Source: Candidatus Auribacterota bacterium
GTDB taxonomy: Bacteria > Auribacterota > JAFGBW01
Length of the DNA: 19,132 nucleotides
Assembly: GCA_016932965.1 (NCBI GenBank)
Contig: JAFGBW010000191.1
Span: forward strand, 1 to 19,132
Direction of reading: 5' to 3'
The notes under the pieces are model-generated. The model was not told the DNA's origin. It searched no databases and saw nothing but the letters and a program-made list of their open reading frames with translations. Within the stretch, counting starts at the first letter, position 1. Every line of letters begins with the position of its first letter. A program made the translations under genes and the position numbers. Of this stretch, positions 617 to 19,132 are shown piece by piece.

Positions 617-1720
617 ATGAATAAAAACAACTGTTTATTTTTTTATCCGTTTCGTATCTCTGGCAGATTAGGCCTGATCCTGGTATTATTTTTTACATGC
701 TGCGTTTCACAAGGACATTCAGCAGGTTCCTGTCAGGACATCCCCGTCGAACGTGAATCACTCTCCCCTCAATCTCTTTTTCAAAATAATCCAAAACTGC
801 TCCAATCCATCCGGTCTTTGGAACCTGTATTATCGACAGCCTCTCTTTCCAGAATGGAGGAAGCCATTAAAAACATCCGAAAAGCAAAAAATATAAGATC
901 TGTTATGGATAAAAGGTTTTTCAAAAAACAAGGAGCTATGGTCGTGTTGGATCAAGTCTCTTTTGAAGACCTCCGATGGTTATCCAGGCATGAGAATCTG
1001 AATTCTACAGAATACGGACTGTTCGAACTTTCAAACGAAAAATGGATTTTTATGAGAAGAGCGGAAGATCTGGAACAGCCTCCTCATTTTTTCCAAAAAC
1101 TCTGGAGATACCTGCGAGGTTACGGATGGGTTAAAATGGCTGAGAACGAAATCCGGCTCCGGCTGCCTCCAGAATTAACCTTTTTGTTTGAACATGGATT
1201 CGTTGTCACAGACATCCACAGTCACCCCAGACCCGATAGTCCGGATTCAAAAAAACCGTCGATCCTGGATCATATTTTCTATAATTCTCCCAACTCCTTT
1301 ATCATTCATAGAGACTTTTTTATCCCCTATGATTCCTATATTGAAGTAAAAGAATGGGAGGATCCGCAACTGTATCAAACCTGGATGAAAGAGGCTCAAT
1401 CCAAGGGGGCAGAAGCCTATTATGATCTGGAACATCAATACGCCTCCCAGTTACAATATCGAGTGATCCCGTGGCATTCCCCTTCTGCTGCTGATGCTTT
1501 TAATCAAAGAAACAAATCTTCATTGATCTATTATCTGACCTGGTGCAAACCCTGGCAGAGGAAAAAACTGCTTGTTCAATTATATAACAGATTGGGCAGC
1601 GCCATGTTCCCTCTGTTTGATTTTTTCACGGAAGAACTGCATTCCCTGTTAGACTGCAATCTCGCATTCAGAGAGGAATGGGACCGAAAAACCCGGCTCT
1701 TTGCTTCTCAGAGCGCATGA
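617..1720 (+). CDS. Exported protein with JAMM/MPN-like HSHP...SxxD metal motif
   Basis: Counted from the ATG at 617, this is a 367-residue protein. Residues 1-36 look like a signal peptide: a basic start, hydrophobic core GLILVLFFTCCV, then a small-residue region ending near HSAG. Residues 200-218 read DIHSHP, an 11-residue gap after the second His, then SILD. That resembles the JAMM zinc-protease signature HxHP...SxxD, whose usual gap is about 7 residues. Glutamates at 176 and 178 (AENEIR) could supply the upstream catalytic Glu. JAMM folds act as deubiquitinases or isopeptidases, or sit in bacterial peptidase and toxin proteins. The substrate here is unknown. The frame is open upstream to 332, so a start at 479 or 545 is possible; 617 was chosen because it puts the signal peptide at the N-terminus. 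The 3' end overlaps the convergent SprT-like gene by 13 bases. Confidence 0.6.
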   Translation: MNKNNCLFFYPFRISGRLGLILVLFFTCCVSQGHSAGSCQDIPVERESLSPQSLFQNNPKLLQSIRSLEPVLSTASLSRMEEAIKNIRKAKNIRSVMDKRFFKKQGAMVVLDQVSFEDLRWLSRHENLNSTEYGLFELSNEKWIFMRRAEDLEQPPHFFQKLWRYLRGYGWVKMAENEIRLRLPPELTFLFEHGFVVTDIHSHPRPDSPDSKKPSILDHIFYNSPNSFIIHRDFFIPYDSYIEVKEWEDPQLYQTWMKEAQSKGAEAYYDLEHQYASQLQYRVIPWHSPSAADAFNQRNKSSLIYYLTWCKPWQRKKLLVQLYNRLGSAMFPLFDFFTEELHSLLDCNLAFREEWDRKTRLFASQSA

Positions 1721-2868
1721 CCAATCAGATTGTTTTTATTTCCAAGAATCAGGCCTTTGAATCTTTTTTTATCATGATGAACCGGCTTGTGCAGAACAAT
1801 ACTTTTTCCATCCTCCTGTCCCTGTTTGTATGGATCGGAATGAATCCACCTTCCTCCTCCTTTGCTTCTCCGAACCCGGGGATGCCGGTATTTGAAAAAT
1901 TCCTCCATGAGCGGACTGACTGCCAACACCAGCTCATTGGACACGAATGGGGCATTCCTGCCCCGTTCCATTTTTTTCCTGAATCCTTCCAATAACCCGA
2001 GAAGATAACTTTTCTTGTGCCGGATTCCTTTCAAGCCGTTTTTTCTCCTGTATTCCTGCCAGAACAAATCACAACACCGTATTAAAAAGGCATAAACATA
2101 CTCGGCCATTTCCAGATTTTCTTTTCTTCCCATGATCTCGATGCTGGTTGTCCGGACATCAAGATTTGGCTGATAAGAAGGCACCAGAATATAATCGACA
2201 AAGAAAAAATCTTTCAAGATGTTACAAATCAAAACTTCCTCCACAGGAACCCGTCTGGTTTTCCTTTCCAGACAACAATAATCATAATCTGAATGAGTCT
2301 CCCCCTCTTTCTGAACAGAAAGATTGTATTTCAAAAGCAGTTCATTGGCTTTCAGCATGGCACTAGAAGCCTCTTTTTCATGGGGAGAAGTGGACAAGGC
2401 AAAAAGTTTTTTGACTTTCTGGATCAATAGGGCCTCTTTAGGCTGCTGTTCAATCTTCCTTCTGTCATCGAGCGAAAATCCCATATCAGCGTCTGATGCG
2501 GTAGCCCTTTCTGAAGCCCCGATCATACGGCTTGCCCTTTTAAATTCGTCGCCGTGAGGCATGGCAAAGGAAGCATGGAACACTTCATCAACGATCAGAT
2601 GTGAAAGCTCATGCTTCAAGGTTTCGATCACAGCATCCCATGAACAATATCGCAAAAGTCTGTCTGAAACCGCAATAGTCCTGGTCAGGGGATCCCATCT
2701 TCCCCAACGGTGCATTTTTTCCACGATGATATTCGGAACCGGAACCTTGAGGCGATAACAATAAATGATTCCCGCAACAGTATCTCTAAGAATCCTGATC
2801 CAGGCATGATACAAATCCAAAGGATGTCTCCAGAATATGATCAGTAGAGGCCAATTAATAATTAACAA
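1708..2868 (-). CDS. SprT-like zinc metalloprotease-fold protein with DUF2786 domain
   Basis: This 386-residue protein has two recognisable parts. Residues ~20-115 are SprT-like: H86-E-L-S-H90 is the HExxH zinc/catalytic motif, and H105 in the MPHGDEFKR context is the likely third ligand. Residues ~146-185 match DUF2786, a helical domain with the usual IQKVKKLFAL...EASSAMLKANELL pattern. The following ~110 residues (VPVEEVLICNILKDFF onward, ending near YKQGQEDG) fit the DUF7168-type domain that often follows it. SprT-family proteins cleave DNA-protein crosslinks in eukaryotes (Spartan); the role of the bacterial DUF2786 forms is not established. The first possible start is TTG at 2868, with a stop just upstream in frame. 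The next ATG (residue 52) would cut into the SprT fold, so the TTG or a nearby non-ATG codon is likely used. No clear ribosome site is seen. No signal peptide is evident. Confidence 0.85.
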   Translation of the reverse strand: MLIINWPLLIIFWRHPLDLYHAWIRILRDTVAGIIYCYRLKVPVPNIIVEKMHRWGRWDPLTRTIAVSDRLLRYCSWDAVIETLKHELSHLIVDEVFHASFAMPHGDEFKRASRMIGASERATASDADMGFSLDDRRKIEQQPKEALLIQKVKKLFALSTSPHEKEASSAMLKANELLLKYNLSVQKEGETHSDYDYCCLERKTRRVPVEEVLICNILKDFFFVDYILVPSYQPNLDVRTTSIEIMGRKENLEMAEYVYAFLIRCCDLFWQEYRRKNGLKGIRHKKSYLLGLLEGFRKKMERGRNAPFVSNELVLAVSPLMEEFFKYRHPRVRRSKGGGRWIHSDPYKQGQEDGKSIVLHKPVHHDKKRFKGLILGNKNNLIGHAL

Positions 2869-5377: not shown

Positions 5378-6415
5378 TTATTCCTGATCATTCTTTTCCG
5401 CTTCGAGCCGGGCGGCTGCTTCTGCCGCTTCCTGTTTCATCTGACCCATTTCTGATTCCGCGATTGCATCAGCTTCTTTTTTGGCCAGATCCAATGCTTC
5501 TTCATCTTTTGTTTTTTCACTTGTATCCTCTGTCATGGAATCAGGTATTGTCTCTTCCCTGATTTCCAAATCAGATGGAGGTGACTCGATAGGCAAAACA
5601 GAAGGGGATTCTCTCTCTTCTTGAATCTCCATGTATTCAGGTTGAACGGATGGAATCTCGGGTTCAGGTTCTATCACGGCAGCAGGGACAGGTCCAGCCG
5701 TTTCAGGGGGTATCACAGGCTCTGATTTTACAGTTTGAGGGACAGAAGAAGAAAACCGGTCTTCAGGAATCTGTTGAACAGAAACCGGCTTCTTTTTTTC
5801 TTTCTTGATTTTTTTCTCTTTTCGTTTTCGTTGCTCTAGGAAATACTGCCGGATCAATCCTTTTGGTTTGAACTGGCAGTGATTAACAAGGTAAAGCCTG
5901 GTTTTCTGGTCTTCCGTCAGCTTACTCTGGTCCAATTGAGCAAATAAGCGCGGCAGCTCATTTACACTGAATTCATACCGGATTGTCTCTTCCTCTTTTC
6001 TGAAAAAGGATTCTTCAAATCCCTTTAAAGTCAAACGGTGAATCCGAATGGTTTTTCCCTGCCGGAACGGATCGGAATGCATTTCCATGAGTTTTAAAAT
6101 CGCGTCCGGCGTGTTTATATCCTGTAATAACGGCACGGCATATTCCGCGTTCCCATATCGCAGATCATCCTGAATAAAAGCCCATCGCACCTGATCATCA
6201 AACCGGTTCGATGCCAGCTGCCTTTTATGGAATCGTTCCATCTGTCTCTTTGTATTTTCCCTTTCTTCACCGGACTGCATTCGGATTTTTTCGCGGAATT
6301 CAGAAATAACAGACAGGGCTTCCTGCCTGGACTCATCCGATAACACAAAGCCGGAAAAAGAAAAAAAGACCGTCAGACCGCATAGAAGACCCGCAACATT
6401 CCATTTATGATTCAC
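5378..6415 (-). CDS. Exported protein of unknown function with Pro/Glu-rich tail
   Basis: I do not recognise this 345-residue protein. Residues 1-26 are a signal peptide: the start is NHKW, the hydrophobic core is AGLLCGLTVFFSFSGFVL, and cleavage is probably near SDES. Residues ~27-185 are a charged, mostly helical domain (RQEALSVISEFREKIR, FDDQVRWAFIQDDLRYG). Then come a lysine-rich segment (RKRKEKKIKKEKKK), a ~100-residue low-complexity stretch rich in P, E, V and S, and an Ala/Glu helical C-terminus (KKEADAIAE...EAAEAAARLEAEK). This layout of folded domain, basic linker and extended acidic tail suggests a periplasmic scaffold, but no activity is visible. The start chosen is GTG at 6415, because AAGGAG lies 9 bases upstream of it. 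An in-frame ATG at 6442 would add 9 residues that include the ribosome site itself. Confidence 0.65.
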   Translation of the reverse strand: MNHKWNVAGLLCGLTVFFSFSGFVLSDESRQEALSVISEFREKIRMQSGEERENTKRQMERFHKRQLASNRFDDQVRWAFIQDDLRYGNAEYAVPLLQDINTPDAILKLMEMHSDPFRQGKTIRIHRLTLKGFEESFFRKEEETIRYEFSVNELPRLFAQLDQSKLTEDQKTRLYLVNHCQFKPKGLIRQYFLEQRKRKEKKIKKEKKKPVSVQQIPEDRFSSSVPQTVKSEPVIPPETAGPVPAAVIEPEPEIPSVQPEYMEIQEERESPSVLPIESPPSDLEIREETIPDSMTEDTSEKTKDEEALDLAKKEADAIAESEMGQMKQEAAEAAARLEAEKNDQE

Positions 6416-6424
6416 TTGAAGATT

Positions 6425-6430
6425 CTCCTT
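6425..6430 (-). promoter_or_regulatory. Ribosome binding site fixing a GTG start at 6415
   Basis: AAGGAG on the minus strand is followed by 9 bases and then GTG. The alternative ATG at 6442 lies upstream of this site and has no comparable signal, so the site decides in favour of the shorter protein with a normal signal peptide. Confidence 0.6.
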
Positions 6431-6564
6431 CCTGAACAACAACTAACCTCTTTCTTAATGAAATAATCTATTCCCTCTCAGTTAACCTGAAATAAAATTT
6501 GATTTTTCATATTAAAAAATGAATAAGAAAAAAAAGCAAAGATATTTTTTTCCAAGAGTAAAAA

Positions 6565-9500
6565 TCAGGAAGCCTGCCGTACAACTGATGGGGGCAAAAG
6601 AGCGTCTAGGTGTTGCAGGATGAGACCTTTTTCATCTTCTTCACTCAAGGCCTCCATGATCTCCATGAACCGTTCCTTAGGAATCTTTAATTGTCTCAAG
6701 ACACGGTTTAAATCTTTTTCAGTCAAAGAAGCGGTTTTAAGCAACCCTTTTATTCTCCTCAGATCATTCAACTGCTCTCCGGCCAAAAAGGTCTGCGGAT
6801 CCCGGTGGTGAATATCTGAAAACGTAGAGATGTGCAGTCTGGGGGCGAAATTAATGACCACCGTATTCCCCTTCTGATCAAATTCCGTCGGCATTTTTAA
6901 TCCAAGGACCGTCCTGATAAAAGCCTCGGCACTGAATCCGTCCGGAGAATTGATCCTGGAAGCAGCTGATATAACATCTTCCCATGATTCCTGGCAGAAT
7001 TTCAGCTTTTCACGGGGCACTTTAGGACTGTCTCTCTCAAACGCCGTATTGAAAAAATAGGTTGTTTCTTTTCTTCCCTGGGCATCCCACAAACGGGCCA
7101 GAGCATAGCAGAAGGTGATGAGGCCTTTGGGCCCGAAATCCACGTTTTCACACATGTATCTGAACCGGATGGTCCTGTTTTCCCTGAGCCAGTCTAAAAG
7201 AAGGGTCAAATGAGCCGGATCCTGTCGCTGTAATTCCTGAAACATTTCCAATACTTCCCGATATTGAGATGCAAAAGCAGGATTGGCATCAACGAGCTGC
7301 CCGGTCAGATAAACCAGCAATTGCGACTGGTTGAGATCCTTAGTCTTTTCATCTGTACTCTGTTTGGCTGCAAAAGTCCTTGCATCACCCAGGTAGAAAC
7401 CTTTTGTTTCTCGCTTCACCACGATACCCAGATAACCGTACAACAGCCGGGCGAACGGATAAAACTGATCGAGACTCATGAATTCCTCCATGTTGCCCAG
7501 TTCCTGCAAAAATAAAATATTCCCAATATGATGATCGGTCAGAGTCCCTGTCCCTCTTCCTGTATAGTAAGCGAGATCAATGAATCCGGAAGCGAGCCAG
7601 TACCGGTACAGATAATTCATAAAACGGTCATCAATATACAGGGTGTTCCCGTCCTTTACGTTAGTGCCCAGACCGATCTTCCTTTGAAGCATGGCAATGA
7701 TTCCATCAAAATCAGTATCGGTTAATCTAAAAACATTGAACCGGCGATCCTCATCCTGGTCAAAATCAAAAAGCCTTTCAATAAAACGTCTGTCTAATTT
7801 TGCCTGGGTTCTGGAACTGGTAAAATGAAAACCGGTGATGGTTCCACCGGAAGCCTTTTGTATTTTATAAAACAAATAAAGAAGCTGTGTAATATGGATA
7901 TCCTGCAAATTGGCAAATACAGGACGGCAATGATCCAATTCTGCTTCTGAAATGAATTGGGCAAAATGATCACCGCCTTCCGTTTCCAGCACCTGTTGTC
8001 GAATGGATTGCAATTGTCTCACCACCTTATCCTGTTTTCTCTTGTTTTTCCCCACCAATCTTCTGATCCTGTTTTCAAACTCGTCTTTCTCTTTCAATGC
8101 CCCAATATCATGCAAACCCGATACATATTCTGCGACATCCTTGTCAAAGCGGTTTCCGTCTTCATAGGATAAAAGATCAGCGCTATAAACTATTTTGACA
8201 AACTGAAATAACATCTCTTTTTCTTCCGGATTTTTAAATTCTTCTAAGGCAGAAGTAAGGGGTCTTGAGGGCTGCTCCCCTCCTATCAGCCCTCCCAATC
8301 CATGATTTCGTGCGATAAACTTCGCCCAGCTGATCACCCTGGCATAGTTTTCTCCCAGGGTCACAGGATCAAGGCCGACTGTATTCAAGGCTGCTTCAAT
8401 CATCTGTTCCCCACGCTTCATATGATCCCCGGAATCATGAATGTCGCCTATGTCATGAAAAAAAGTGATCGCATGAACGATTTTATGAACCATGTCTCTT
8501 GGAAACCCGATTTGGGGGGAACTCATGTAATCAAAAACATGATCCAGAGAAACCGCGATGGGTTCCAAATGACTCTCCGGAATGGCCGGTAATCTGTTCT
8601 CTCTTCTTTCCCGGTTGAAATCGTCATATTGCCGGAATTCAAACAATCTCATGAAATGATTCAACCTGACGCAGTGATGAAGGATCGTTACTCCGACATA
8701 TTCTAACCCGGTATATTTATCCCTGTTTAACATTCCAAGCCATGTCATGGCCTTGGTCATTCTGTTTCCTTTTTCAGTCTTCATGTCTAATAAACGGGAA
8801 AGGGCTTCATCAGGCTGAGGCTCTGAAAAAGCCCCGGTTAAATCTTCCAACGCTCCGCGGTCAGGGACAACAAGCTCTGGATAGGTGAATTCCTTTGCCC
8901 CAGCTTGTCCCTTTTCAGATGTTTTTAATTTATTGATGATCGGTCTGACCCCTCCATCTCCTGAAAAAAGGCTCCTGTTGTCCCTGTGTTCCCTGGACAA
9001 AGTGATGATGAGTTCGATATCTTCCTTGCTGATTTCCTTTGTTTTTTCCAATAAAGGTCTCAATATTCTTTCTATATTGGCTGAATCATCTCCCAAAAGA
9101 ATCCGGGAATAATCTTTGAGCATGTTGGTAAGAAAAATCACTTTTTTTATGGTTTCATCCGTTCCATTCTGGTCAATTTCTCTGAACCTTTTTTGAAGAC
9201 GTGTCAGCTCCCCTCCCTGCAGATCAGGACGCACGGATCCGTCTTTTCTGCGGCTGTTGAAATAACCGTACCAGGTTCCATCCATATAAGTCCTGGGCAT
9301 GCCCGGCAATGAATGGGTCAATAACGCCAGGCTTTCCGGCGCGTGTTCCAGATGATCCAATGCCAGACAGGATTCACAGTTTAAATCATGCCGGCTGTAT
9401 CCATCCCAGAAGGCATCACCCTTATCAACAAACCAGTGAAGGTCTGCGATGTTGGTATTATCCTGCACCCATTTCCATAATAGAAAAATATTATTCTCTT

Positions 9501-10626
9501 TTGATTTCCAAAGACGGGCTAATTCAAGAAGATTCGAAAAAGGGATCGCCTGAGTCCTCTTGGATATGGCATTAAACAGCATTTCCCGGATTCTGTTGAT
9601 AGCCTCGCTTTGAATGCTCCTCAATTGGAGAAAGGATGTGATGTCCTCTGCTGCCATTTCACAACGCAAGGCATGAAAAAAACAACTGACCGCTTTTTTA
9701 TAACTGGCGTTGGCATGGCGGAAATTTTCCTCGGAAGGTTCTTCCATCAGATGGTCTCCTTCCTCCATGAATCTGGTTCCTTCTGTGATGAGCTTCTCTG
9801 ATAAGAAATCCAGACTCACTCTGGGTCTTGAAGCGTCTTCACCGTATATCTTGTCATCAATAAAAAGGATCTCCTCCTCTATGTCGCCTCTGATTAGGTT
9901 CTGTTTACCTTTTCCGGCAAAGTGAGCTAAAATCGGATCCTCCGTATATTCTTCAGGGGTTTTATTGGGGTCCAGTGTTAATATCACCCTCATGAATTCA
10001 TCCATGGATGGGATGCAGCTCTCGACAGACCGCGCATGAAGAACCGGCGCTGCTTTTGAACGCCTCTTTAATAAAGCAATGGCCTTGACTTCTTTTTTGA
10101 TGACTTTTTCCAGTTGAGATACATCCGTGTCTCCCGACCCCATTTTTTCCTGCTGTACCGCTGTCCCCAGGTTTATGGATTGCAGCTGTTGAGAAAAAAA
10201 TTCCCAATTTATTTTTTCTGCATCTTCCTGTTGAGTTGAAAACAGATGAATGCCTGTGGGAAAAGATCCTTTTTCATTTTTCAAATGGAGCGTCAGGGAC
10301 AGATTGCCAGATTGATCAAGAAGCACCACAAAAGTTTTATCATCCGTCCCAATATCAAAAGCCTCGCTGTCCTGCGGGGAAATTTCTGCCAGAGAAATCC
10401 CGGTTTGTTCTGCCAAAACCACATCCATCAACTTTCCCTGCATGAAGTACTGATCCCCATACCATTTCCTGCCGGCGATTTGATTGCCTTTATATACCGC
10501 CCATTGTTTGTTAGCTTCTTTTGAAAGTCCCTGGGATTGTTGTGTGACTGGAGCAAGGGCAAAAACACTTGCCGGACTCAAAACCAATATAAGATTGATA
10601 ATGAAAAACAAATTCAGTTTCTTCAT
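6565..10626 (-). CDS. Giant exported protein with central HD-phosphohydrolase domain
   Basis: From the ATG at 10626 this is a 1353-residue protein. It begins with a classic signal peptide (MKKLNLFF, hydrophobic core, cleavage near VFA-LAP). Residues ~640-830 carry an HD-domain ligand set: H650/H651 (ILHHC), H724-D725 (FFHDIGD), H735 (GDHMKRG), H775 (ARNHG) and D817 (YSADLLSY). HD proteins are metal-dependent phosphohydrolases acting on nucleotides, cyclic dinucleotides or (p)ppGpp; the substrate here is unknown. The first ~620 residues and the last ~500 match no family I know. A charged coiled-coil-like stretch follows the HD domain. The frame stays open 64 codons further upstream, into and past the promoter and into rarA, but the ATG at 10626 is preferred because it starts the signal peptide and lies downstream of a strong promoter. 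The ribosome site is weak (GAAGAT). The ALAP-type leader on a giant protein is reminiscent of Omnitrophota (inference). Confidence 0.75.
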   Translation of the reverse strand: MKKLNLFFIINLILVLSPASVFALAPVTQQSQGLSKEANKQWAVYKGNQIAGRKWYGDQYFMQGKLMDVVLAEQTGISLAEISPQDSEAFDIGTDDKTFVVLLDQSGNLSLTLHLKNEKGSFPTGIHLFSTQQEDAEKINWEFFSQQLQSINLGTAVQQEKMGSGDTDVSQLEKVIKKEVKAIALLKRRSKAAPVLHARSVESCIPSMDEFMRVILTLDPNKTPEEYTEDPILAHFAGKGKQNLIRGDIEEEILFIDDKIYGEDASRPRVSLDFLSEKLITEGTRFMEEGDHLMEEPSEENFRHANASYKKAVSCFFHALRCEMAAEDITSFLQLRSIQSEAINRIREMLFNAISKRTQAIPFSNLLELARLWKSKENNIFLLWKWVQDNTNIADLHWFVDKGDAFWDGYSRHDLNCESCLALDHLEHAPESLALLTHSLPGMPRTYMDGTWYGYFNSRRKDGSVRPDLQGGELTRLQKRFREIDQNGTDETIKKVIFLTNMLKDYSRILLGDDSANIERILRPLLEKTKEISKEDIELIITLSREHRDNRSLFSGDGGVRPIINKLKTSEKGQAGAKEFTYPELVVPDRGALEDLTGAFSEPQPDEALSRLLDMKTEKGNRMTKAMTWLGMLNRDKYTGLEYVGVTILHHCVRLNHFMRLFEFRQYDDFNRERRENRLPAIPESHLEPIAVSLDHVFDYMSSPQIGFPRDMVHKIVHAITFFHDIGDIHDSGDHMKRGEQMIEAALNTVGLDPVTLGENYARVISWAKFIARNHGLGGLIGGEQPSRPLTSALEEFKNPEEKEMLFQFVKIVYSADLLSYEDGNRFDKDVAEYVSGLHDIGALKEKDEFENRIRRLVGKNKRKQDKVVRQLQSIRQQVLETEGGDHFAQFISEAELDHCRPVFANLQDIHITQLLYLFYKIQKASGGTITGFHFTSSRTQAKLDRRFIERLFDFDQDEDRRFNVFRLTDTDFDGIIAMLQRKIGLGTNVKDGNTLYIDDRFMNYLYRYWLASGFIDLAYYTGRGTGTLTDHHIGNILFLQELGNMEEFMSLDQFYPFARLLYGYLGIVVKRETKGFYLGDARTFAAKQSTDEKTKDLNQSQLLVYLTGQLVDANPAFASQYREVLEMFQELQRQDPAHLTLLLDWLRENRTIRFRYMCENVDFGPKGLITFCYALARLWDAQGRKETTYFFNTAFERDSPKVPREKLKFCQESWEDVISAASRINSPDGFSAEAFIRTVLGLKMPTEFDQKGNTVVINFAPRLHISTFSDIHHRDPQTFLAGEQLNDLRRIKGLLKTASLTEKDLNRVLRQLKIPKERFMEIMEALSEEDEKGLILQHLDALLPPSVVRQAS

Positions 10627-10661: not shown

Positions 10662-10688
10662 TTGAGTTAATAATAATCCTTATATAAT
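10662..10688 (+). promoter_or_regulatory. Predicted rarA promoter, interlocked with the divergent one
   Basis: A perfect -10 TATAAT (10683-10688) has a weak -35 TTGAGT (10662-10667) 15 bases upstream. Initiation near 10695 would give a leader of ~49 bases. The likely start lies inside the opposing promoter's -10/start region. Confidence 0.45.
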
Positions 10689-10696
10689 ATGTAAAA

Positions 10697-10725
10697 TATA
10701 TACCCTCATTCAACAGATATGTCAA
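10697..10725 (-). promoter_or_regulatory. Strong predicted sigma-70 promoter of the giant HD gene
   Basis: On the minus strand, TTGACA (10720-10725) is a perfect -35, separated by 17 bases from TATATA (10697-10702). Initiation near 10690 would give a leader of ~64 bases before the ATG at 10626. This supports the downstream start over the longer open frame. Confidence 0.65.
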
Positions 10726-16662: not shown

Positions 16663-16705
16663 TTTACAGCCTATTCATTTTTAAATAATGTTAGATGCGA
16701 GTATA
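16663..16705. promoter_or_regulatory. Divergent promoter region between histidine kinase and CheR-like gene
   Basis: Plus strand: TTTACA (16663-16668), 17 bases, TAATGT (16686-16691), initiating near 16698 about 36 bases before the GTG at 16734. Minus strand: -10 candidate TATACT (16700-16705) with no good -35, initiating near 16693 for the kinase gene. The two would overlap and compete for polymerase. Confidence 0.4.
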
Positions 16706-16720
16706 TCTTATCCGATATTC

Positions 16721-16725
16721 AGGAG
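16721..16725 (+). promoter_or_regulatory. Ribosome binding site fixing the GTG start of the CheR-like gene
   Basis: AGGAG is followed by 8 bases and then GTG at 16734. This is the best-formed ribosome site on the plus strand in this region, and it places the hydrophobic leader inside the protein. Confidence 0.65.
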
Positions 16726-16733
16726 AAGTAAAA

Positions 16734-19132
16734 GTGTTATCTTTTTTTAAGCCAGTTGCATTCAATCTGATCGGTGACAAGGCGGCGTGCGACAAGTCTT
16801 TCAGAGGCACGAAGAAAGACACCCCTTTTTTAAAAAAAACTCTCCTGGCTGGATTAACCGTATTATTATTCCATTCCCCTTTCCCGTCTTATGCGGAATT
16901 ATTACCCATTGATATTCAGGCTGTTACGCTGGATTATTCTAAACCTGAAGATGACATTCTCCGTTTTTTTCTGAAAGAATTGGCTAAAACAGCTTACGAA
17001 GAAGGACATTATTCCAATGTACTGACCGATCCAAAAATGTTTGATGTATTTTTCAGGAATTTTACATACAAACCAGACTACCTCATTGATAAAATCCCTT
17101 TAAAGAAAACTTCAACCATCAGTAAAATGATCCAGGCCACATTGAGGGACTTGATTCCGCATTATGCGGAAGCTATTTTAACTGCCGACAAAGAATATTT
17201 TCTATTCTGCAACACTATCCGTGGCAATCATATTTTATGCATAACAAAAAAACCGTTATTCCAGCCGCTTTATGAAGACCTGCATCATGAATTATTCTTA
17301 TCCATTCTAACCGTAAAAAATTTTTTAAATAATATTTTAAGAGAACCTGTTTATTTCGAATCCCTTCAGAACACACCCAGCTTCGGCCGCTTGCTTCTTC
17401 AGGAGGTTCAACCTGTCAAATCCCCTTCTTTCTCCGACATAAACCTTCCCTATTTTATCGAAACCCTGCCTTCTCTGGGTTACGACGTAGCCAGTCTTGC
17501 CAACGAAGCCCGTTTTTTCAAGGGTGAAACGGAACAGGAAAGAGAATGGTGTTTCTATTCCCTTCCGATTGTCCAATATGCGGTCCGCGACAAAAAACAA
17601 TTGAACCATTTTTTCTTCAAGCTGGATGATCCCGTCTCCCTCAAACAGATTTTGGAATTATTAACGAATGAAAATGGCAAAGGAGCTACCCTCCTTAAAA
17701 AACACATTCAGTCATATATTTCGTTAAAACAAAACCATGAATTTCCGACCATGAATCCCCACGAAAAATTCAGCGAGTTTTTTGAAAACTTGCACTATTC
17801 CATCAATTATGACGCCATCCCTGCCGCCCATACAAGCAAACTCTATCAGAATGTGATCAATTATATATTAAGCCAGGGTATTTCTAATTTTAATGAATTA
17901 AGTAAAAATAAAGAGATGATCATAACCGTTATCAATAAATTTTTCACCCTGGGCACAACTTATTTTTTTCGCCATTGGAGTATGTTAAGCGATTTTCCTG
18001 ATCATCTTTCTGATGCGATTAAAGAGGCCAGATCGCATAAAAGACCTTTGAAAGTGTCCGTATTTGCCTGTTCCACAGGAGAAGAGGTCTTGACGATTGC
18101 GTTTTCCTTTCTGGATAAGGGAATCACTGATTTCACCATTTTAGGATCTGACATCAACGAAGCTTACATTGAGCAAGCCAAGAAAATGACCTATGCCATG
18201 CAGAATTTTGAAAGGATCCCAGACAACATCCGGGGTCCGGTTATAAAAAAATATTTCAAAAAAAATGGCGATGGAAATTATGAGATTAAGGATAAAGATT
18301 TTTTTAATAGACGGATTTCCTATATCGTTCTTGACATCACTAAACCCCTGCCTTCTGATCTGCCTAAGGAATGGGCTCCGCCTTATGATCTGATTTCCTG
18401 TCAGAACATCTTTCTCTATTTGAGTGATAAATTCGTGTCCCGCCTTTATAAGAATCTCCTGAAATTATTAAACGAAAACGGACTTTTTATTCTAGTGGAC
18501 AAAATTTATTCACACAATCTTCTGAAAAAATGCAACCTGTCCAGAAAAACCCTCCACATCAATGATATCATCATCAAATTGATCCCTCAAAAAATGACCG
18601 ATCAACAGATCTATCAATCTTTAAAAGAAATCAATAAAGAAGGACCGTATTCCTTTGCCGCCATTAGGCAGATCAATGATCTTGCTCTTTTTAATCCACC
18701 GCAAAAACGGGCTTGGTTTAAAGAACTGATGCATCAGAAAGGGGACCGTTCCTTGATCTATTATTTAGTCGGAAAAAATAATCTCAAACTGGGAGCATAC
18801 AGCGAGGCGGAAGAAGTTCTGACGAAGGGAATATGGCAAAGTCCCTATTTATTGAACAATTATTGGATGCTGGAAGAAGTCAAAAAAAAATTGGGGAAAA
18901 AATCAGACGCAGAATATCTGAATGTCATCAGCAAGGCCATCAAGCTCTTTTATAGCAACAGAGCGTATAAAGATTTGACGGAAATTCTGAATCTCTTTCA
19001 GAAAGCCATTAAAAAAGAGCCTGATAATATGCTGGGCTTCTATGTCTTCGGATATCAATTGATCCGATACGGACTTTTCCTTAAAGACAATAACGGATCA
19101 TTACTGGATTACGAACGATTCTTCAATCAGGC
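16734..19132 (+). CDS. CheR-type SAM methyltransferase with leader peptide and TPR-like tail (3' end outside window)
   Basis: About 799 residues are visible and the frame is open to the window edge. Residues ~34-55 form a hydrophobic leader (LLAGLTVLLFHSPFPSYA) after a basic region, like a signal peptide or anchor. Residues ~56-380 match nothing I know. From ~385 there is a CheR-like unit: an N-terminal helical part leading to TTYFFRHW (family form T-x-F-F-R), then the SAM-binding loop ACSTGEE (445-451), the acidic strand end GSDIN, DITKPLP, and DLISCQNIFLYL (552-563, family form DLIxCRNxLIYF). CheR enzymes methylate glutamates of chemoreceptors using S-adenosylmethionine. After ~640 there is a helical, TPR-like tail (YYLVGKNNLKLGAYSEAEEVLTKG), as in CheR-TPR proteins. 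A leader on a SAM-dependent enzyme is odd, because SAM is cytoplasmic; it may be an inner-membrane anchor. No chemotaxis genes are adjacent, so the target may not be a chemoreceptor. Confidence 0.8.
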   Translation, partial: MLSFFKPVAFNLIGDKAACDKSFRGTKKDTPFLKKTLLAGLTVLLFHSPFPSYAELLPIDIQAVTLDYSKPEDDILRFFLKELAKTAYEEGHYSNVLTDPKMFDVFFRNFTYKPDYLIDKIPLKKTSTISKMIQATLRDLIPHYAEAILTADKEYFLFCNTIRGNHILCITKKPLFQPLYEDLHHELFLSILTVKNFLNNILREPVYFESLQNTPSFGRLLLQEVQPVKSPSFSDINLPYFIETLPSLGYDVASLANEARFFKGETEQEREWCFYSLPIVQYAVRDKKQLNHFFFKLDDPVSLKQILELLTNENGKGATLLKKHIQSYISLKQNHEFPTMNPHEKFSEFFENLHYSINYDAIPAAHTSKLYQNVINYILSQGISNFNELSKNKEMIITVINKFFTLGTTYFFRHWSMLSDFPDHLSDAIKEARSHKRPLKVSVFACSTGEEVLTIAFSFLDKGITDFTILGSDINEAYIEQAKKMTYAMQNFERIPDNIRGPVIKKYFKKNGDGNYEIKDKDFFNRRISYIVLDITKPLPSDLPKEWAPPYDLISCQNIFLYLSDKFVSRLYKNLLKLLNENGLFILVDKIYSHNLLKKCNLSRKTLHINDIIIKLIPQKMTDQQIYQSLKEINKEGPYSFAAIRQINDLALFNPPQKRAWFKELMHQKGDRSLIYYLVGKNNLKLGAYSEAEEVLTKGIWQSPYLLNNYWMLEEVKKKLGKKSDAEYLNVISKAIKLFYSNRAYKDLTEILNLFQKAIKKEPDNMLGFYVFGYQLIRYGLFLKDNNGSLLDYERFFNQ

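What the first reader, a model, noticed from the sequence alone, without database searches (positions are those of the whole stretch)
6565..10626. 1353-residue exported protein built around a complete HD phosphohydrolase site
The HD ligand series (H650/651, H724-D725, H735, H775, D817) is intact, yet the protein has a textbook signal peptide and ~1100 residues that match no family I can recognise. HD enzymes usually handle intracellular nucleotides or second messengers, so an exported one implies an extracytoplasmic substrate, or a leader doing something other than export. This is the strongest candidate here for an undescribed system.
Basis: partly seen in the sequence, partly recalled or inferred. 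Interest (0 to 1): 0.65.

Follow-up and report, generated by a model that had tools for sequence, protein, structure and literature searches.

The report
Exported HD-site enzyme with shared leader
A 1353-residue orphan protein from an unnamed bacterium carries an export signal and a probable metal-dependent phosphohydrolase site, and its leader (ALAP-x-S/T) turns out to be shared by about 17 unrelated proteins of the same genome, several of which look like ATP-using enzymes that normally stay inside cells.

Summary
The HD domain is probable, not proven. Pfam HD scores 17.0 bits (cut-off 22; E 0.0074) on sub-regions only. The complete ligand pattern occurs in 9 of 20,000 shuffles, and in fetched DNA it otherwise hits only HD-family loci (16 of 16). 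Structure models were too weak to decide. It is not HD-GYP. No homologue was found in 44 genomes of its phylum, plasmids, phages, viral contigs, or by exact 8-residue patterns in GTDB r220. The rest of the protein matches nothing.

The new result is the leader. A codon-pattern census of its own genome shows ALAP-x-S/T behind a signal-peptide-like segment in about 13 proteins, 17 with variants. S/T two residues after the Pro occurs in 11 of 12 leaders against 14 of 69 other matches (p = 3.6e-6). Mature parts are unrelated: four Ser/Thr kinases, a PfkB kinase, a GNAT, the HD protein. Two distant genomes of the phylum carry ALAPKS leaders on PPDK-like and APH+M3 proteins. So the HD protein is one of a set of exported cytoplasm-type enzymes with a shared N-terminal motif. 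Destination and substrate are inferred.

The parts
6565..10626 (-). HD-site protein gene, 1353 aa plus stop
   Evidence: translation; no family match for the full length; no homologue
10555..10626 (-). signal-peptide-like leader, residues 1-24; likely cut VFA|LAPVT (Pro after A-L-A disfavours the later site: established knowledge, not tested)
   Evidence: sequence; hydropathy; one of about 17 such leaders
10543..10560 (-). ALAPVT, the ALAP-x-S/T motif (residues 23-28)
8137..8709 (-). probable HD metal-dependent phosphohydrolase domain, residues about 640-830
   Evidence: PF01966 16.7 bits and 17.0 bits (cut-off 22); HDIG TIGR00277 13.4 bits; ligand pattern
8674..8676 (-). H651 in H-x-x-R-L, first HD ligand
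8452..8457 (-). H724-D725 in FFHDIGD, signature HD dyad
   Evidence: lies in the PF01966 match
8422..8424 (-). H735 ligand
8302..8304 (-). H775 ligand (NH, not HH as in HD-GYP)
   Evidence: PmGH ligands in PMC4159591
8176..8178 (-). D817 in YSADLL, last ligand
10684..10713 (-). promoter-like TTGAAT-18-TATTAT upstream of the HD gene (chance-level match)
   Evidence: 12 found, 9.6 expected
617..1720 (+). second motif-bearing exported protein in the window: leader from ATG 617, motif SLSPQS at 758-775, JAMM-like HSHP...PSILD
   Evidence: no Pfam match

Best explanation
The gene encodes a lineage-restricted protein that is exported by the Sec pathway and carries an HD-type metal-dependent phosphohydrolase core (about residues 640-830) between two large regions of unknown fold. 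It belongs to a set of otherwise unrelated proteins in this genome that share the N-terminal motif [A/S/Y]-L-[A/S]-P-x-[S/T] directly at or just after a signal peptide. The set is rich in enzymes that use ATP or acetyl-CoA and normally work inside cells. Most likely the signal peptide takes the protein across the inner membrane, is cut at VFA|LAPVT, and the LAP-x-S/T mature N-terminus is read by a sorting or secretion step that sends this set to one place outside the cytoplasm, possibly another cell, where the HD site hydrolyses a phosphoester. Shown: leader, motif class, ligand pattern. Inferred: export, cleavage, sorting, destination, activity, substrate.
For: Ligand pattern at 9/20,000 shuffles, and in real ORFs otherwise only in HD-family loci. 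PF01966 E 0.0074-0.029 against 24,736 models on three of seven overlapping sub-regions tried. Own-genome codon-pattern census: 84 places, leaders; S/T at the second residue after Pro in 11/12 leaders against 14/69 others, p = 3.6e-6. Domains: PF00069 2.5e-20 and 1.1e-19, PfkB 5.7e-29, GNAT 1e-5; two more kinases 6.2e-16 and 4.8e-13 with YLAPKS and SLSPRS leaders. The four leader-bearing kinases keep the catalytic D/K/N and the DxG Asp by reading (HRDLKPGN, FTDLKPHN, HGDPKPAN, HNDLKWEN). Ordinary kinases of the same genome whose N-termini could be read lack the motif. Mature parts are mutually unrelated except kinase to kinase. ALAPKS leaders in G006 and G013, another family of the phylum, on APH+M3 and PPDK_N proteins.
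Against: The HD score is below Pfam's cut-off and vanishes in some sub-regions. hhalign to a profile of the phylum's HD proteins, mostly HD-GYP, gave no support. Structure models are weak and fold matches insignificant. No homologue, so no conservation test of the ligands. The ALAPK[S/T] search found leaders in only 3 genomes of 43; the two genomes of the same order show none with ALAPx[S/T]. Leaders were picked by eye from a hydropathy ranking. No SignalP run was possible.
Confidence: 0.45

Rival explanations
1. Ordinary exported or periplasmic HD phosphohydrolase that frees phosphate from nucleotides; the ALAP-x-S/T motif is only this lineage's preferred signal-peptide end, with no sorting role.
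For: In about half of the own-genome leaders the motif begins right at a plausible cleavage site (xxA|LAP).
Against: In others the motif lies several to about 20 residues past the likely cleavage site (L126, L127, L132, G006 and G013 proteins), and S/T two residues after Pro is not a signal peptidase requirement. ATP-dependent kinases with the same leader make little sense in an ATP-free periplasm.
Confidence: 0.25
2. No HD enzyme: the ligand series is a chance pattern in a large exported helical protein with a structural or adhesive role.
For: Sub-threshold Pfam score; hhalign null; no significant structure match; extra HD dipeptides at 730 and 839.
Against: Pattern frequency 9/20,000, and hits in real ORFs otherwise all HD. 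Weak matches to PF01966 and TIGR00277 at the same residues. HD-superfamily chains (3djb, Cas3 HD 3s4l and 8wth, PDE10, SAMHD1) recur among the sub-significant fold matches.
Confidence: 0.18
3. The leader is an uncleaved N-terminal anchor or targets an internal membrane compartment, so the enzymes keep access to ATP inside the cell.
For: Explains ATP- and acetyl-CoA-dependent partners; Pro directly after A-L-A blocks one cleavage site (established knowledge).
Against: A good earlier site exists in many leaders (VFA, LFA, LYA, SHA before LAP). Positive N-termini put the rest outside by the positive-inside rule.
Confidence: 0.12

Closest known systems
[quoted passage not shown]
   Same: Complete ligand order H-HD-H-H-D, H-x-x-R-L at the first ligand, HDIG dyad, ADLL at the last; sub-threshold PF01966 and TIGR00277 matches at the right residues
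   Different: Below family cut-offs; about 73 residues between first His and HD; exported leader; about 1150 residues of unknown sequence around it
HD-GYP c-di-GMP phosphodiesterases (PmGH, PMC4159591)
   Same: Multi-His ligand series
   Different: HDIGD instead of HDIGK, NH instead of HH, no GYP motif, different spacing, no profile match
Proteins exported by a short N-terminal motif after a signal peptide (Plasmodium PEXEL; surface-lipoprotein export signals of Bacteroidota), from memory
   Same: Works like: a short motif just behind the signal peptide shared by unrelated cargo, kinases included
   Different: Not related; no motif match, no known reader, bacterial non-lipoprotein; sorting role untested

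Membership tests
HD superfamily (PF01966) | Score over the curated cut-off of 22 bits | tested here: not met
   17.0 bits at best, E 0.0074, residues about 717-817
HD superfamily (PF01966) | H...HD...D ligand series in order | tested here: met
   H651, H724-D725, H735, H775, D817; 9/20,000 shuffles
HD superfamily (PF01966) | Five-helix HD core with converging ligands | tested here: inconclusive
   AF2 pLDDT 37.8 and 53.6; all helical; HD chains appear only among insignificant matches
HD-GYP | HD-x-G-K and HHExxDGxGYP | tested here: not met
   HDIGD and NHGLGGLIGGE (motif from PMC4159591)
RelA/SpoT hydrolase | HDxxED motif | tested here: not met
   sequence HDIGDIHD; motif from memory
PgpH-type 7TMR-HD | Several transmembrane helices before HD | tested here: not met
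   single hydrophobic segment, the leader
Sec signal peptide | Positive n-region, hydrophobic core, small residue at the cleavage site | tested here: met
   MKKLNLFFIINLILVLSPASVFA|LAP; SignalP not available
ALAP-x-S/T leader class (described here) | Motif at or shortly behind the signal peptide, on unrelated mature parts | tested here: met

The most novel reading that the evidence does not exclude
ALAP-x-S/T is an undescribed N-terminal sorting signal of this phylum that, after Sec export, delivers a repertoire of cytoplasm-type enzymes (kinases, acetyltransferases, an HD phosphohydrolase, PPDK-like and JAMM-like proteins) to the cell exterior or into another cell.
Probability: 0.3. Interest if true: 0.85.

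Novelty: new variant of a known kind. Interest (0 to 1): 0.55.

Why it matters
If the motif is a sorting signal, it is a simple sequence tag that would let the exported effector-like repertoire of this poorly known lineage be read directly from genomes, and it would raise the question of where ATP-dependent enzymes work once exported.

Tried and rejected
Homologue searches in the whole phylum, plasmids, phages, viral contigs and GTDB r220 patterns: none. The one weak own-genome hit (L002, E 0.004) lies in the wrong frame over a flagellar flgI-like gene and was rejected. PDB sequence search gave only chance hits. AF2 of 600-930 failed (pLDDT 37.8); 625-845 reached 53.6 with pTM 0.53, but no fold match is significant. 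HD-GYP rejected on motif; RelA/SpoT and 7TMR-HD on motif and topology. hhalign to the phylum's HD set negative. A radical SAM scan to reach named relatives gave only distant hits; the phylum was not identified. Literature: no description of such a leader found; the library is open-access only.

Full report
Observation. The gene is at 6565-10626 on the minus strand and encodes 1353 residues. The leader is MKKLNLFFIINLILVLSPASVFALAPVTQQ. It is the only strongly hydrophobic stretch. No library recognises the full protein.

Is there an HD domain? Probably. Three of the seven overlapping sub-regions tried match Pfam HD at 15.1 to 17.0 bits, E 0.0074 to 0.029 against all 24,736 models. The best lies below the curated cut-off of 22, and the match disappears in other sub-regions, so the evidence is fragile. 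NCBIfam HDIG matches the same place at 13.4 bits. The full ligand pattern with loose spacing limits is found in 9 of 20,000 shuffles of the protein. In 1057 real ORFs it hits only this protein and 16 others; 15 come from loci fetched by the HD model and the sixteenth is an HD-GYP by reading. The pattern was written with this protein in view, so these figures describe its specificity and are not a blind test. An HMM from the phylum's HD proteins scores the region at 9.6 bits against 1.8 for the best of 200 shuffles, but the score is spread over two weak pieces, one of them the second HDIG at 839, and hhalign to the same set is negative. Structure prediction without relatives gave a poor and a half-ordered all-helical model. 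Fold searches gave nothing significant, though HD-superfamily chains such as 3djb, Cas3 HD 3s4l and 8wth, PDE10 and SAMHD1 recur in the lists.

What kind of HD? Not HD-GYP: the HDIGK lysine is Asp, the HH pair is NH and there is no GYP (PMC4159591). Not RelA/SpoT (no HDxxED) and not 7TMR-HD (no further membrane segments). With H651, H724, D725, H735, H775 and D817 it has enough ligands for a metal centre of two ions, by analogy; this is inference.

Relatives. None in 44 genomes of its phylum, the plasmid, phage and viral collections, or by exact 8-residue patterns in GTDB r220. It is an orphan at the sensitivity available.

The leader. The codon pattern for ALAP (Leu also matched Phe) was sought in the whole own genome: 84 places, no excess over the reversed pattern. 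Reading them shows that about a dozen sit right behind a signal-peptide-like segment at the start of a protein. The residue two after the Pro, not used in picking them, is S or T in 11 of 12 and N in the twelfth, against 14 of 69 S/T in the rest. The window protein has ALAPVT. Variants turned up when the genome's protein kinases were inspected: two divergent kinases begin with leaders ending YLAPKS and SLSPRS, and the neighbour gene at 617-1720 in this very window has SLSPQS. In all, 17 own-genome leaders are tabulated; one pair is near-identical and three are short, cut by a contig end or lack an ATG. The printed row for the window protein in that table is misplaced by the script onto LSPAS; the true motif is ALAPVT.

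What the leaders carry. Above family cut-offs: four Ser/Thr kinases, PfkB, GNAT. Below: the HD protein, and an 848-aa protein with a nucleotidylyltransferase-like stretch. The mature parts do not resemble each other except kinase with kinase. In two genomes of another family of the phylum, ALAPKS leaders stand on a PPDK_N protein and on an APH-like plus M3 peptidase protein, and on two proteins of unknown kind. Among the places read, the ALAPK[S/T] search gave nothing similar in the other genomes, and the two genomes of the same order showed none for ALAPx[S/T]. Ordinary kinases of the own genome do not have it where their N-terminus could be read. So the leader is a module attached to unrelated proteins, patchy in the phylum.

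Mechanism. Most likely the signal peptide is cut before LAP, leaving LAP-x-S/T at or near the new N-terminus, where it could be recognised. Since kinases and acetyltransferases need ATP and acetyl-CoA, the set would make sense if delivered into another cell or a compartment with these cofactors. This is inference; no secretion machinery was tested.

Verdict. The HD protein is a new variant of a known kind with a probable, unproven active site. The shared leader is the more interesting result and makes a directly testable claim.

Noticed in passing
window 617-1720 (+): Exported protein with motif SLSPQS and a JAMM-like HSHPRPDSPDSKKPSILD stretch, with an insertion against the usual spacing; no Pfam match.
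   Followed up: partly
window 16695-19130 (+), open at the window's end: CheR-type SAM methyltransferase (PF01739, 6.9e-23) behind a signal-peptide-like segment (FLKKTLLAGLTVLLFHSPFPSYA), without the LAP motif: another cytoplasm-type enzyme with an export-like leader.
   Followed up: partly
window 1708-2868 (-): SprT-like plus DUF2786 plus DUF7168 protein.
   Followed up: no
window 5378-6442 (-): Orphan 354-aa protein just downstream of the HD gene, hydrophobic N-terminus, Pro/Glu-rich C-terminal half; no family.
   Followed up: no
L281:783-3932 (-), genome G013: PPDK_N protein of 1050 aa with signal-peptide-like start and ALAPKS.
   Followed up: partly
L282:232-4278 (+), genome G006: 1349-aa fusion of an APH-like kinase region and an M3 peptidase with ALAPKS leader.
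   Followed up: partly
G000 contigs C2 (L130) and C185 (L131): Two near-identical leaders (SALAPKNNNLTAVT) on two contigs: recent duplication or strain variation in the bin.
   Followed up: no
G000 genome: About 26 Pkinase matches in one 3.1 Mb genome against one each in G006 and G013.
   Followed up: no
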